A stretch of 64,000 nucleotides of DNA from positions 21,599 through 85,598 of the forward strand of contig JAHBXY010000016.1 of NCBI GenBank assembly GCA_019636275.1. Reading direction: 5' to 3'. Positions within the stretch are counted from its first letter, which is position 1, and each line of letters begins with the position of its first letter. The notes under the pieces were generated by a model. It searched no databases. It saw nothing but the letters and a program-made list of their open reading frames with translations, and was not told where the DNA came from. Positions 33,219-53,227 of this stretch are shown piece after piece. This DNA is from Planctomycetota bacterium (GTDB taxonomy: Bacteria > Planctomycetota > J058). Position numbers and translations under genes: made by a program.

Positions 33219-33301
33219 TGCCGAGGGCGGGATTCGAACCCGCATGCCCTTGCGAGCGGGCGCTTTTGAGGCGCCTATGTCTGCCGTTCCATCACCTCGG
33301 C
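33219..33301 (-). tRNA. tRNA-Leu(CAA)
   Basis: An 83-nt gene with perfect 7-bp acceptor stem (GCCGAGG/CCTCGGC), intact T arm (GGGTTCGAATCCC), an extra long variable arm (CCGCTCGCAAGGGCATG region) typical of Leu, and anticodon loop CTCAAAA giving anticodon CAA (reads UUG). The 3' CCA is not encoded. A near-consensus promoter lies at 33314-33342. Confidence 0.92.
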
Positions 33302-47376: not shown

Positions 47377-47873
47377 GACGGGCCTCCAGGCGGACCGCCG
47401 CAACCGAGGTGCCCGCGCGGCGCCTGACGCGCCGGCAGGCGCGGGGTCATGGGTGACCCTGCTTGCGCGACCTTGACGCAGGCGCCGCCGTGGCTGACCC
47501 CGGCTCAAGTCATTGCCGCGTCAGGCTTCGAGGGCTGGCGTCAGGGGCGGCCACCGGCGCAGATCGTTGGCGCCCTAAGCCCTCCGACGCGCGGCCCGAC
47601 GCCCTCGCCACCCCGTCGGCGGCGGAAGCGCAGCGCGGACCGCACCTTGTCGCACGACGGGGGCGGCGCGGCGGACGCGCCGCGCGGCCCGACGAGGTCG
47701 ACGGCTCCGGTCGGCGGCGAGCCTCCCGAAGATTTCTCGCCCGCGCGCGCTGAAGCGGCCTCCACACGCTCTCCACGCGCGCGGACACGGACGCGCGGCG
47801 CGTAGCGTCGACGACCGAAACGGCGCGCGCCTCGCACTCCACAGGCGCACGCGCGACGTCCGCGAGCGAGCGC
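47377..47873. other. Gap of ~500 bp without recognised gene
   Basis: No reading frame here has a start with a ribosome-binding sequence or family resemblance. There are G+C-rich hairpins (for example around 47664-47690 and 47780-47840) but nothing I can name. It lies upstream of the promoter of the giant RNA and may include its regulatory region. Confidence 0.5.
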
Positions 47874-47902
47874 TTGAGGTCGTCGGCGGCGATCCGTATA
47901 TC
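47874..47902 (+). promoter_or_regulatory. Sigma-70-type promoter of the giant RNA
   Basis: TTGAGG (47874-47879) and TATATC (47897-47902) are spaced by the optimal 17 nt. This is one of few A+T-rich patches for kilobases. Transcription would start at about 47908, exactly where the closing helix of the RNA begins. Confidence 0.7.
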
Positions 47903-47907
47903 TGTCC

Positions 47908-49488
47908 CTCGTCAGGCGCGGGACGAGTCCCGCCCGGACGGCCGAAACGGCGGCGACGCCACGGTCGCGTGGGCAACCACGAGGCCAGCGTCGCGTGACC
48001 GGCCCGTAGGAGGGTCGGGCCCTCGGAGACGAGGCGCTCACCCCTCCGGTGAATCCATGAGCCAGGGCCGGCTCGCGGCGCGCGGTGGCGAGGTCGACGA
48101 GGAGGCAGGAAACCCCAGGAGAGCACACCGCCTCACGCAGGCGGGGGCTGCTCGAGTCCTTCACACCTCCGAGGGCCACGAGGCCAGGCGACGGGTGGCG
48201 CCCGAGAGGGCGCCGCGCGAGCGCGGGTCTCCAAGGTCGAGGGAGGCAGGGGTGCCGCCGAGAGGCGGCACGTGCCGGTCCGCGGTCGCACCGCGGGTCG
48301 GGGCGCCGACGAGGCGCAGGGGGCCGTGAGGCCGTCTGCCCTCACCTGACGGCGAGGAGGTCGCACTCCTCGTCGTCGCGGTGCTAGCTCGCGGCGGACG
48401 CACAGGGGCGCTCCCGAAGGGGGCGTCACAGGGTCCGCCGGGTGACGAGGCCCCGAGGCTCGAGCGGAGCAAGGCTCTGGAGGGGCGAAAGCCCAGGAGA
48501 GCAACGGCCGGCGCGTCCGCGCGCCGGTGCGGCTTCACGGAGGGACGAAGGCTTCGAAGCAGACGAAGCCGGTGACGTCGCGCGCACGACAGGCGGCGCG
48601 CGGTCGAGGACGGCGGGGACGTCGGCGGCGAGAGCCGCCGGCCGAAACGCCGCCCCTAGCCCCGGCGGGGAGCCAGGCAAACGCGTCGTGAGGCGCGGGC
48701 GTCGGTGAAACCCGGGGTGACAGGGCCGCGCGCAGCGGGTCGTGAGCCGGTGTCGCGCCGGAGCGAGCGGAGCGACGCTCGCGAGCCAGGTGGTGTGGAG
48801 GCTTCGGCCTCGACGCGCCAGGCGAGCGAGGGTCGCGCAGCTCGCGAAGGGCAGCGACACACGACTGACGCCCGGTGGAGAACTGCAAGGGAGCAAGGTG
48901 GCCCCGAGAGGGGCGCCGACCTCGGTGAGGAGCAAGGCTCTGAAGGGTGAGACCCAGGGGCGGCTGCGGCATGAAAGAAGGCCGTGGAGCCCGGGCGTGC
49001 CAGGAAACCGCTGGGAGGCTGAGAGCGCCTGAGAGCGGAACCGCGGCGGGGTGGACGTCCCGCCGCACGCGCGAGCGATCGCGCGCACGGGGCTGGCCCG
49101 GGTGATGTCGTCGAAGGGGTCGAAGACCTCGTGGGAGTCGGCTCCGGCCCGAGAGGGCCGGACGGCCGGGAGGACGTGAGGAACTCTGGAGGGGATCGAC
49201 TCCACGGAGGCGTGAACCCGAGCTCAACACTCGGGGGACGGCGAGGCAGGACGACCGCGTTCACGCGCGGGGCACCCGAAGGTCCGACGAGGGTGCTGGC
49301 TACCTCGCACAGAGCGCTTCGCAGGAGACCCGACGACCCCAGGAGAGGGCGGCCACACGGCGGCGACGCCGCGCGGCCAGCGACCTCCCGACCCGGGACT
49401 CCGGGGAGGGAAACGGCAGCCGGGCTCGAACGGGCCTGACACACGAGGGGCGGTGGCTCGAGAGGGCCACCGCCCCTCGCCTTTTTGT
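47908..49488 (+). ncRNA. Candidate giant structured non-coding RNA (~1.58 kb)
   Basis: Between a 17-nt-spaced promoter and a strong T5 terminator no frame has a plausible start or domain, yet perfect hairpins are dense. Stems of 5-15 bp with GAGA loops lie at 48021-48034, 48197-48214, 48252-48271, 48623-48640, 48901-48914, 49143-49162 and the terminator; GCAA at 47968-47981, GAAA at 48483-48494, UCCG at 48508-48527 and UUCG at 48798-48811 add others. The ends can pair: 47907-47912 with 49443-49448 and 47913-47917 with 49434-49438. GGAGCAAGGCTCTG recurs at 48466 and 48929. CCCAGGAGAG recurs three times. Such many GNRA/UNCG caps, paired ends and one-unit transcription are features of large ornate RNAs. 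No RNase P, tmRNA, rRNA or group II domain V motif is seen. Class unknown. Confidence 0.8.
49445..49486 (+). terminator. Strong intrinsic terminator with GAGA-capped 15-bp stem
   Basis: Perfect 13-bp stem 49445-49457 / 49466-49478, extended by a U-G and a C-G pair to a GAGA tetraloop (49460-49463), followed by GCC and TTTTT (49482-49486). It is the best intrinsic terminator in the window and ends the + strand RNA. Confidence 0.9.
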
Positions 49489-49627
49489 TCTCTTCCCCAG
49501 GACCCGCAGTTCACGCGCACGCGCTCGGGCGCGCTCGACCCATGACGCTGCCCTCGCAGAGGACGCAGCGCCCGTGCGCGTGCGCGTGGACAAGGCCAAG
49601 GGCGACGTCCACCCGCGCGGCCGGATG

Positions 49628-49990
49628 TCAGGCGTGCTCGCGGATGCGGCTGTCGTCGACGATCCAGAGGCGCCCCGAGAGGTCGAGCCCTGGAGCGTCG
49701 AGCCGCGGCGCGAGGACCTGCTCGATGACCCGCATGACGGCCCGCGCGTTCTGCCGGGCGGGACGCAATACCAGCAGGCCTGGGTAGCGGCCCGGCGGAT
49801 AGGCCACGATGTTGGCGAAGTCGAGGTCGAGGGTGATCAGGGCGCGCCCCTCCTGGGCGCAGGCGGCGCTGATGGCCGGATCCTTGGCCCCTGTGAGCCC
49901 TTCGTCCGCGACCGTGTCCACGTCGTGGCCGCAAGCCCGGAGTGCGTCGGCAGCCTCGAGCGGGAGGTTCTCGTCGAGCTTGAACCTCAA
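49628..49990 (-). CDS. DUF5615 PIN-like protein (toxin-type partner)
   Basis: A 120-residue protein with a PIN-like fold: LKFDENLP-type start (here MRFKLDENLPLEAADAL), HDVDTVADEGL, and LITLDLDFANIVAYPPG carry the acidic residues of the family. DUF5615 proteins are usually encoded with DUF433 as a presumed toxin-antitoxin pair acting on RNA. The start TTG 49990 overlaps the DUF433 stop, so the pair is coupled. It lies about 140 bp downstream of the giant RNA terminator on the opposite strand. Confidence 0.82.
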   Translation of the reverse strand: MRFKLDENLPLEAADALRACGHDVDTVADEGLTGAKDPAISAACAQEGRALITLDLDFANIVAYPPGRYPGLLVLRPARQNARAVMRVIEQVLAPRLDAPGLDLSGRLWIVDDSRIREHA

Positions 49991-50208
49991 GCGCTGAGCA
50001 CACCGCCGCGCGCGAGCTCGGCTGCGAAGAGGAGCGCGGCCTGAACGTCCTCGGGCTCGAGCGCGGGATAGCTGCGGATGAGGTCGGGGACGGCGGCTCC
50101 GTCCGCGAGACCGTCGAGGATCACCGAGACCATGATCCGGGTGCCGCGGATGCAAGGGCGGCCGTGGCACACCTCGGGATCCGCGCTGATCCGGTCGCGC
50201 CAGTCCAT
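49987..50208 (-). CDS. DUF433 protein (antitoxin-type partner)
   Basis: A 73-residue DUF433 protein: CHGRPCIRGTRIMVSVILDGLADG is the family core, a winged HTH-like DNA-binding fold. Start ATG 50208 is preceded by GGTGCGGAG. It overlaps the DUF5615 gene, which it presumably inhibits and represses. The 160 bp upstream hold no gene. Confidence 0.87.
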   Translation of the reverse strand: MDWRDRISADPEVCHGRPCIRGTRIMVSVILDGLADGAAVPDLIRSYPALEPEDVQAALLFAAELARGGVLSA

Positions 50209-51712: not shown

Positions 51713-53227
51713 ATGAGCACCGACGCGGCCACCTTCTCGCGCGCGCGGCTCGACGCCGTCCTCTTCGACCTCGACGGCGTCGTGACGCGCACGGCCCACC
51801 TGCACGCCCGCGCCTGGAAGCAGGCCTTCGACCCGGTGCTCGCGCGCGCCGGGCAGCCGCCGTTCGACGCCGAGGGCGAGTACCGGGCGCACGTCGACGG
51901 CAAGCCGCGGCTCGACGGCGCGCGCGCCCTCCTGGCGGCCCGCGGGCTGTCGCTCCCGGAGGGAAGCGACGACGAGCCCGACACCGTGCGCGGCGTCGCC
52001 CGGCGCAAGCACGCGGACTTCCTCGCCCTCCTGGGGGCGGAGGGGGCGCAGGCGGACACGGGCGCGCTCGACCTGCTGCGGCGCCTGCGCGCGGCCGGCT
52101 TCAAGACGGCCGTCGTGACGGCGAGCCGGAGCTGCCAGCAGGTGCTCGCGTCGGTCGACGCGACGGACCTGTTCGACGTCCGGGTCGACGGCAACGACGC
52201 CGCCGACCGGGGCCTCCGGGGCAAGCCGGCGCCGGACACGTTCCTGGCCGCGGCCGAGGCGCTCGGCGTCGCGCCCGCGAGGGCCGCGGTGATCGAGGAC
52301 GCCCAGGCCGGCGTGGAGGCCGGGCGCGCCGGCGGCTTCGGCCTCGTCGTGGGCGTCGACCGCGACCACCAGGCCGCGGCCCTGCGCGCCCGCGGCGCGC
52401 ACGTCGTCGTGCGCGACCTCGGCGCGTCGGTCGTCGAGGACGACCGCCTCCCCCCGCCCGCCCTCGAGCGGCTCGGCGAGCTCGCCGACCGCCTGCGCGC
52501 GCGGCCGCCCGCCGTGTTCCTCGACTATGACGGCACGCTCTCGCCGATCGTCGACCGCCCCGAGCGGGCGGTCCTCCCGCCGGCCACGCGCGAGGCCGTC
52601 GAGCGGCTGGCGCGACGCTGCCCAATCGCCGTGGTCAGCGGCCGCGACCTGGCCGACGTGCGCGACAAGGTGGGCGTCCCGGGCCTGTGGTACGCCGGCA
52701 GCCACGGCTTCGACATCGCGGGGCCCACCGGCGCGCACGTGCATCCCGACGCCGACGCGCGCCTGCCGGCGCTCGACGCGGCGGAGCAGGAGCTCCGGGC
52801 CGCCCTGGCCGGCGTCGAGGGCGTCCTCTTCGAGAGGAAGCGCTTCTCGCTGGCCGTGCACCACCGCCTCGTCGACGACGCGCGCGTGCCCGAGGTCGAG
52901 GACGCCGTCGCCGCCGCCCGCGACCGCCACGACGGCCTGCGCATCGGCCGGGGGAAGCGCGTGCTGGAGCTGCTCCCCGACCTGCCCTGGGACAAGGGGG
53001 CGGCCGTCCGCTGGCTGCTCGACGTCCTCGGCCCCGAGCGGCTGCCGGTCTACCTCGGCGACGACGTCACCGACGAGGACGCGTTCCGGGCCATCGCGGC
53101 CGACGGCGTCGGCGTCGTCGTCCTCGACGGCCCGCGCCCCACCGCCGCCCGCTACCGCGTCGCCGACCCCGACGAGGCCCGCGCCCTGCTCGAGGCGCTG
53201 GCCGCGGCCCTGGAGGCGGCGCCGTGA
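51713..53227 (+). CDS. Fused beta-phosphoglucomutase-like HAD and trehalose-6-phosphatase
   Basis: A 504-residue fusion. The N-terminal HAD domain (about 1-245) has FDLDGVVTRTAHLHARAWK (catalytic Asp pair), VVTASRS and KPAPDTFL, VIEDAQAGVEAGR, as in beta-phosphoglucomutases. The C-terminal domain (about 265-500) is trehalose-phosphatase type: VFLDYDGTLSPIV, VVSGRDLADV, GSHGFDI, KRVLELLP, and GDDVTDEDAF. Together they convert beta-glucose-1-phosphate and trehalose-6-phosphate. The stop overlaps the GH65 start, so enzyme and phosphorylase are coupled. Substrates are inferred from the pairing. Confidence 0.9.
   Translation: MSTDAATFSRARLDAVLFDLDGVVTRTAHLHARAWKQAFDPVLARAGQPPFDAEGEYRAHVDGKPRLDGARALLAARGLSLPEGSDDEPDTVRGVARRKHADFLALLGAEGAQADTGALDLLRRLRAAGFKTAVVTASRSCQQVLASVDATDLFDVRVDGNDAADRGLRGKPAPDTFLAAAEALGVAPARAAVIEDAQAGVEAGRAGGFGLVVGVDRDHQAAALRARGAHVVVRDLGASVVEDDRLPPPALERLGELADRLRARPPAVFLDYDGTLSPIVDRPERAVLPPATREAVERLARRCPIAVVSGRDLADVRDKVGVPGLWYAGSHGFDIAGPTGAHVHPDADARLPALDAAEQELRAALAGVEGVLFERKRFSLAVHHRLVDDARVPEVEDAVAAARDRHDGLRIGRGKRVLELLPDLPWDKGAAVRWLLDVLGPERLPVYLGDDVTDEDAFRAIAADGVGVVVLDGPRPTAARYRVADPDEARALLEALAAALEAAP

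What the first reader, a model, noticed from the sequence alone, without database searches (positions are those of the whole stretch)
47874..49488. Giant structured non-coding RNA of about 1.58 kb with tetraloop-capped hairpins
Seen directly: a 17-nt-spaced TTGAGG/TATATC promoter; about eleven perfect hairpins, seven capped by GAGA and others by GCAA, GAAA, UCCG or UUCG; 5' and 3' ends that can pair (47907-47917 with 49434-49448); and a T5 terminator with a 15-bp stem. No protein frame on either strand is convincing. Established: many GNRA caps, end-closing helices and autonomous transcription are traits of large ornate RNAs such as OLE, GOLLD and ROOL. Inference: this may be a new or unrecognised class in this lineage.
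Basis: partly seen in the sequence, partly recalled or inferred. Interest (0 to 1): 0.93.

Follow-up and report, generated by a model that had tools for sequence, protein, structure and literature searches.

The report
Unknown giant RNA spanning two phyla
This stretch holds a gene predicted to make a noncoding RNA of about 1,580 bases whose fold is kept by matched mutations in relatives from two bacterial phyla; it matches no RNA family in the Rfam library and is likely a stable structural scaffold, so a whole class of giant RNA may have gone unnoticed.

Summary
Window 47909-49486 is a stand-alone giant RNA gene: promoter, 5'-3' closing helix, GNRA hairpins, terminator. Rfam gives no match even at E<=10. 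Homologues occur in 36 of 392 Planctomycetota genomes at >=40 bits and in 77 of 329 genomes of a Myxococcota-side phylum at E<=1e-6; the best score in 200 control genomes was 25.5 bits. One genome has six copies. A tree-aware test on a structure-blind alignment of 69 loci finds 20 covarying pairs, 19 canonical. The consensus fold repeats ten symmetric 3x3 loops whose end positions are G.G or A.A in 86% of cells and swap together. An rRNA-type boxA stands near the presumed 5' end in 29 of 71 loci, 0.56 expected, but in none of the 11 closest to the window; rRNA leaders support it in three genomes and not in five. The papers searched do not describe the family. Best mechanism: a stably folded, rRNA-style scaffold RNA (inferred). 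That it is a structured RNA family is near certain; what it does is not known.

The parts
47874..47902 (+). Predicted sigma70-type promoter (TTGAGG 47874-47879, 17 nt, TATATC 47897-47902); start inferred near 47909
   Evidence: Sequence; boxes recognisable in most of the 11 closest copies
47909..49486 (+). Predicted giant noncoding RNA, about 1,578 nt
   Evidence: Similarity of orthologue and paralogue spans it; covariation
47911..47917 (+). 5' strand of end-closing helix (GUCAGGC)
   Evidence: Pairs with 49434-49440; replaced by GGTCGAGC/GCTCGACC in both copies of G007 and by CTGACGAA/TTCGTCAG in family f60
49434..49440 (+). 3' strand of end-closing helix (GCCUGAC)
   Evidence: As above; end-pairing statistics
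48021..48034 (+). GAGA-capped hairpin
48197..48214 (+). GAGA-capped hairpin, 7-bp stem
48252..48271 (+). GAGA-capped hairpin, 8-bp stem
48492..48947 (+). Long-range helix 48492-48494/48945-48947 and 48498-48502/48937-48941 around a 3x3 loop; its strands are the repeated CCCANGAGAG and CUCUGNAGGG modules
   Evidence: 48500-48939 covaries; 88% and 92% paired cells
48551..48894 (+). Helix 48551-48555/48890-48894 and 48559-48562/48883-48886 around a GAA/AAG 3x3 loop
   Evidence: 48553-48892 and 48561-48884 covary; 91% and 93% paired
48733..48866 (+). Insert (approximate ends) particular to the window's copy; lacking in its paralogue and nearly so in its orthologue
48880..49042 (+). Conserved core used for models R1 and R2
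48952..49119 (+). Helix 48952-48955/49116-49119 and 48959-48964/49107-49112 around a 3x3 loop
   Evidence: 48959-49112 and 48960-49111 covary; 96% and 93% paired
48966..48985 (+). Hairpin GCGGC/GCCGC
   Evidence: helix 5; 48966-48985 covaries
48989..49102 (+). Helix 48989-48998/49093-49102, 10 bp
   Evidence: 204 both-sided cells of 535 paired, 82% paired
49008..49038 (+). Hairpin 49008-49012/49034-49038 and 49016-49020/49026-49030 with a 3x3 loop showing G.G to A.A exchange at 49013/49033
49127..49409 (+). Helix 49127-49130/49406-49409 and 49134-49138/49398-49402 around a 3x3 loop
49184..49347 (+). Helices 49184-49194/49337-49347 and 49200-49210/49317-49327, each around a 3x3 loop
   Evidence: 49207-49320 covaries
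49444..49486 (+). Intrinsic terminator: 14-bp perfect arms and T5

Best explanation
47909-49486 is the gene of a giant structured noncoding RNA of a family absent from Rfam, predicted to be transcribed as its own unit and likely to work as a stable, rRNA-style structural scaffold. Shown by sequence comparison: a unit from promoter to terminator; helices kept by compensatory changes in Planctomycetota and in a Myxococcota-side phylum; ends that can pair; a body of short helices separated by repeated 3x3 purine loops. Inferred: transcription from about 47909; in many relatives (not in the copies closest to the window) a boxA loads Nus factors so that polymerase crosses more than 1 kb of untranslated RNA, as for rRNA; the closed, tetraloop-rich fold resists decay and docks through repeated loop modules into a particle, of itself or with protein. 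No enzymatic or regulatory step is claimed.
For: Structured RNA: in 77 core homologues 26 of 27 pairs show both-sided changes, with 421 such cells against 111 +/- 11 shuffled and 33-89 slid (that alignment is fitted to the model). On a structure-blind MAFFT alignment of 69 loci a null that keeps the tree gives 20 pairs at E<=0.05, 19 canonical in at least 80% of sequences. G.U exceeds A.C 682 to 232 in paired cells, which points to the + strand. Stand-alone unit: a terminator-like site 360-580 nt after the core in 44 of 77 loci (counted); paralogues match over the RNA gene and a short stretch before it, and no match was found farther out. rRNA-style expression: boxA-like TCTTTGA at -720..-340 in 29 of 71 loci, 0.56 expected. 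Scaffold-like build: end pairing, ten 3x3 loops, CTCTGNAG 120 and the CYCANGAGMG strand 100 against 5.4 and 5.0 shuffled. No ORF cluster spans more than 10 of 77 loci, so no shared partner gene within about 6 kb. Up to six copies per genome.
Against: No transcript, localisation, particle or phenotype data: scaffold is inferred from build alone. None of the 11 loci of the window's family and of G007 has a boxA in range, although the 16S leaders of G000 and G001 have one. Only G171, G052 and G449 show a boxA in both the giant RNA and the 16S leader; in G244, G037, G061, G586 and G571 the giant RNA has one and the 500 nt before 16S show none by the pattern. End pairing is uneven: z below -2 in 9 of 25 boxA-anchored loci; against mismatched ends p=7e-4 for those 25, but p=0.08 for the 16 left after I thinned close relatives. 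Presence is patchy (36 of 392; 77 of 329). The one partner tried, TROVE/Ro60, is absent from the window genome.
Confidence: 0.5

Rival explanations
1. It is a trans-acting regulatory RNA: the repeated modules or loops bind a regulator protein or mRNAs and titrate them.
For: Repeated two-strand module about 20-fold over chance, several diverged copies in some genomes, own promoter and terminator.
Against: Repeated strands pair with each other inside the RNA (48498-48502 with 48937-48941), so those are not free for targets; size and long-range architecture exceed what a sponge needs (recalled knowledge).
Confidence: 0.2
2. It is a ribozyme: a conserved pocket of the core catalyses a reaction such as cleavage or ligation.
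For: 55 invariant columns, paired ones included, among 11 core sequences; large size, 930-2,611 nt from boxA to T-run in 25 loci.
Against: No match to a ribozyme family of Rfam; no internal cleavage boundary seen in the paralogue comparisons.
Confidence: 0.12
3. It is an accessory RNA of a phage, plasmid or transposable element, as GOLLD often is (recalled).
For: Patchy presence, two phyla, up to six copies, and a 1,170-bp 99% duplicate 3.8 kb away in L111.
Against: No match in phage or plasmid records (with the window's RNA) or in viral contigs with three exact patterns; chromosomal neighbours are shared within families: one upstream gene family directly before the RNA in 8 of 9 f60 loci compared, farther off in the ninth. 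Insertion scars were not looked for.
Confidence: 0.1
4. It is a chance pattern of a GC-rich intergenic stretch or a decayed protein gene.
For: GC-rich sequence makes chance hairpins common: up to 17 in other pieces of the window.
Against: Covariation, conserved ends, GNRA/UNCG caps 11 against 0.25, homologues in over 100 genomes.
Confidence: 0.01

Closest known systems
GOLLD, ROOL and OLE RNAs (large ornate bacterial RNAs)
   Same: Large, structured, with long-range folding. GOLLD and ROOL form RNA-only cages and OLE a dimer (PMC12286853, abstract and passages), the model for the scaffold reading. Their intergenic, noncoding nature is recalled.
   Different: No match to their Rfam models in the region or in two distant homologues at E<=10; a ladder of 3x3 G.G/A.A loops; boxA in many members; gene families of up to six; 930-2,611 nt from boxA to T-run in 25 loci.
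Ribosomal RNA precursors (boxA and leader-trailer helix)
   Same: boxA near the presumed 5' end in 29 loci and a helix closing the RNA ends, the two features described for pre-16S rRNA (PMC10250234, passages).
   Different: No match to rRNA families; the closing helix read here is 7-8 bp; the copies closest to the window lack boxA.
Candidate large ncRNAs from the GC-IGR pipeline (e.g. smtA motif)
   Same: Long structured RNA of unknown function found by comparison (PMC11109978, passages).
   Different: That survey favoured low-GC genomes and its main text does not contain Planctomycet or Myxococc, which may explain why this family was missed.

Membership tests
GOLLD / ROOL / OLE (Rfam models) | Sequence-structure match to the family's covariance model | tested here: not met
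   No match at gathering over the window, none at E<=10 in 47800-49560, none to these in two distant homologues at E<=10
GOLLD / ROOL / OLE | Homo-oligomeric particle of defined stoichiometry | not testable with these tools
   Needs purified RNA and cryo-EM; feature from PMC12286853
rRNA, RNase P, tmRNA, group I/II intron, HEARO | Match to Rfam models (ARAGORN for tmRNA) | tested here: not met
   ARAGORN found only a tRNA-Leu elsewhere in the window
rRNA-type transcription unit | boxA near the 5' end | tested here: inconclusive
   29 of 71 loci with enough upstream DNA; 0 of the 11 loci of the window's family and of G007. Same-genome 16S leaders: present with it in 3 genomes, not found in 5
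rRNA-type transcription unit | Helix closing the 5' and 3' ends | tested here: met
   Met for the window; compensated sequences in three groups; uneven elsewhere and not significant once close relatives are thinned (p=0.08)
Ro60-bound RNA | TROVE protein in the same genomes | tested here: not met
   None in the window genome; 14 of 250 genomes match at E<=0.001, 4 of them with the RNA
Phage or plasmid RNA | Occurrence on phage or plasmid records | tested here: not met

The most novel reading that the evidence does not exclude
A new class of giant RNA, spread over two bacterial phyla and multiplied into gene families, is made under rRNA-type antitermination and folds into a self-assembling particle built from a new repeating element, a 3x3 loop flanked by interchangeable G.G and A.A pairs.
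Probability: 0.3. Interest if true: 0.97.

Novelty: categorically new. Interest (0 to 1): 0.9.

Why it matters
Bacterial RNAs over 1 kb that are neither rRNA nor coding are very rare (recalled), and GOLLD, ROOL and OLE proved structurally surprising (PMC12286853, abstract). This family is of that size or larger, occurs in 113 of 721 genomes sampled in two phyla (36 of 392 and 77 of 329), and has its own recurrent loop element and, in many members, an rRNA-like expression signal. It gives structural biologists a covariation-backed target and makes it directly testable whether RNA-built particles are a wider bacterial strategy.

Tried and rejected
Protein frames on both strands: no convincing ORF in the window; among three long paralogues short matches appear on both strands and in different ORFs, none dominating. 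Shared partner gene: all-against-all of ORFs around 77 loci gave family-specific neighbours only. Phage, plasmid and viral origin: no hits. Ro60/TROVE co-occurrence: no. The window-specific insert as a genomic repeat: beside itself one match of 74% over 107 nt and seven shorter, weaker ones. R1's helix 1 (71% paired cells) and helix 3 (82%) are weaker than the rest and differ from the pairing; I do not rely on them. A Lysobacteraceae contig (L131) hit by the pattern scan was not confirmed by R1 at E<=1 or R2; its genome gave R1 scores of 17.8 and 18.9 bits only. Scanning with R2 repeats much of its own training set (65 loci); R1, trained only on G000-G003 and G005-G007, had found 39 of 392 and 50 of 329 genomes at E<=0.01 on its own.

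Dropped rows: the structure-blind alignment holds 69 of the 77 loci (long insertions, cut cores or short flanks left out); R2 used 65 of 77. The end-pairing test covers 33 loci with both ends placed; 8 of them, from the window's family and G007, were placed by the closing helix itself and are excluded. The covariation null rests on 20 simulated alignments. The Fisher tests on 3x3 loops do not correct for relatedness.

Full report
What is there. Between upstream minus-strand ORFs without a Pfam match and a DUF5615/DUF433 pair from 49628 lie a promoter (47874-47902), a closing helix (47911-47917 with 49434-49440), many capped hairpins and a terminator (49444-49486). Eleven GNRA/UNCG-capped hairpins stand against 0.25 expected. 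Rfam has no match at gathering over 64 kb and none at E<=10 in the region.

Relatives. The own genome has a second copy, 74-80% identical, on another contig. A same-genus genome has both copies, 37 kb apart on one contig. That contig has the same length (169,687) as a record titled Planctomycetota bacterium ACE_NR_PLAN1, which places the window in Planctomycetota. Further copies lie in the same family and order. The 11 copies align over the RNA; in at least two (L042, L044) parts of the 5' region lie further upstream than my cut, and a terminator-like site was detected in 8 of 11.

Spread. A covariance model of a 163-nt core (48880-49042; R1) finds 39 of 392 genomes of the phylum at E<=0.01 and 11 of 12 of the class at E<=0.1. 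A pattern scan of named genomes returned 17 stretches, all MAGs by title: 12 Planctomycetota, four titled Myxococcales or Deltaproteobacteria, one Lysobacteraceae. R1 confirms the four at 63-102 bits and not the last. With R2 (65 sequences), 36 of 392 Planctomycetota genomes reach 40 bits (counted; 55 of 392 at E<=0.01, the weaker ones not trusted). In the phylum of G392, which I take to be Myxococcota from its record title, 77 of 329 genomes match at E<=1e-6 (50 of 329 with R1 at E<=0.01). Many of these loci had gone into R2, so R1's counts are the independent ones. In 200 genomes of the phylum around the Lysobacteraceae-titled contig, 11 match R2 at E<=0.01 but none above 25.5 bits, which sets the noise.

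Covariation. On the fitted alignment of 77 cores 93.2% of cells pair and 26 of 27 pairs change on both sides. To avoid fitting bias I aligned 69 loci (-420 to +470 around the core) with MAFFT without structure, built a tree, and simulated substitutions along it at random positions (20 simulations, in the manner of R-scape as I recall it). Twenty column pairs exceed the null; 19 are canonical in at least 80% of sequences, and they include partners 439, 339 and 323 nt apart. The twentieth is a G.G to A.A exchange. RNAalifold on the same alignment gives 29 helices in one nested plan.

A repeating element. Ten internal loops of that consensus are exactly 3x3. Of their 1,312 end positions 676 are G.G and 449 A.A; G.A or A.G, 107. 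The two exchange together within single loops, with Fisher p below 1e-4 at one end or both in 9 of 10 loops (relatedness not corrected). The middle position is mostly free. The loop strands recur in the sequence: CTCTGNAG 120 times and CYCANGAGMG (with a near variant) 100 times in 76 kb of RNA, against 5.4 and 5.0 in Markov shuffles and 2.6 and 1.7 in the same length of flanks. I know no named motif that fits; G.G/A.A replacement in the HIV Rev site is recalled, and one paper search listed a single paper, not opened.

Ends and expression. In family f60 the RNA begins with GCTCTTTGAAAAACAAG (or close variants), then CTGACGAA, which pairs with TTCGTCAG just before the terminator. The first string resembles boxA of rRNA leaders (sequence recalled; PMC4807359 and PMC10250234 describe its role, seen as abstract start and passages). 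TCTTTGA-type boxA occurs at -720..-340 in 29 of 71 loci, 0.56 expected from the flanks. I then read 500 nt before 16S in 10 genomes (of 23 asked, 11 had a 16S match, one of them without its 5' end). G171, G052 and G449 show boxA there and in the giant RNA. G000 and G001 show it in the 16S leader only. G244, G037, G061, G586 and G571 show it in the giant RNA but not, by this pattern, in the 16S leader. So the rRNA parallel is suggestive, not settled. From boxA to T-run the RNA measures 930 to 2,611 nt, median 1,142, in 25 loci (one long value, L090, may rest on a chance boxA). Of three long paralogues in G449, one pair matches over 2,749 nt at 72%; the third matches both in two blocks of about 1.3 kb together.

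Genomic behaviour. In the ten within-genome groups and in G684 and G589, matches cover the RNA gene and up to about 230 nt before its boxA, where there is one; none was found farther out. In G399, with six copies by R2, four match one another over about -300 to +780, one in parts, and one over only 69 nt with one other. Neighbours are stable within families, e.g. a gene that I read by eye as an NtrC-type activator directly upstream in 8 of 9 f60 loci compared, and differ between families. So it looks inherited as a chromosomal gene and duplicated as a unit.

Mechanism. A closed, tetraloop-rich, ladder-like RNA without a shared neighbour gene, preceded in many lineages by a signal that protects rRNA transcription, most resembles a structural RNA. 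I give 0.97 to a real structured RNA family, about 0.5 to the reading as stated, 0.2 to a regulator and 0.12 to a ribozyme.

Literature. Searches listed no description of such a family; the library is limited to openly licensed papers, and beyond passages of three papers I saw listings only.

Noticed in passing
window 49628-50208: DUF5615 (PIN-like) and DUF433 genes side by side on the minus strand, a toxin-antitoxin-like pair, just downstream of the RNA.
   Followed up: no
window 51713-53227: HAD hydrolase fused to trehalose-phosphatase.
   Followed up: no
L111 (G010), two cores 3.8 kb apart: Two copies of the RNA gene 99% identical over 1,170 bp, a recent duplication.
   Followed up: partly
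L184, L195, L197 (G449): Three members of about 2.6 kb from boxA to T-run in one genome, the longest measured here.
   Followed up: partly
window 48733-48866: Insert of about 130 nt seen only in the window's copy; weak similarity (74% over 107 nt) to G000:C250.
   Followed up: partly
L230 and L229, 16S leaders of the own and same-genus genomes: The rRNA leader has a boxA (GTTCTTTGAAAATTG) although the giant RNA of these genomes has none in range.
   Followed up: no
window 33219-33301: tRNA-Leu (caa) on the minus strand; Rfam did not report it at gathering.
   Followed up: no
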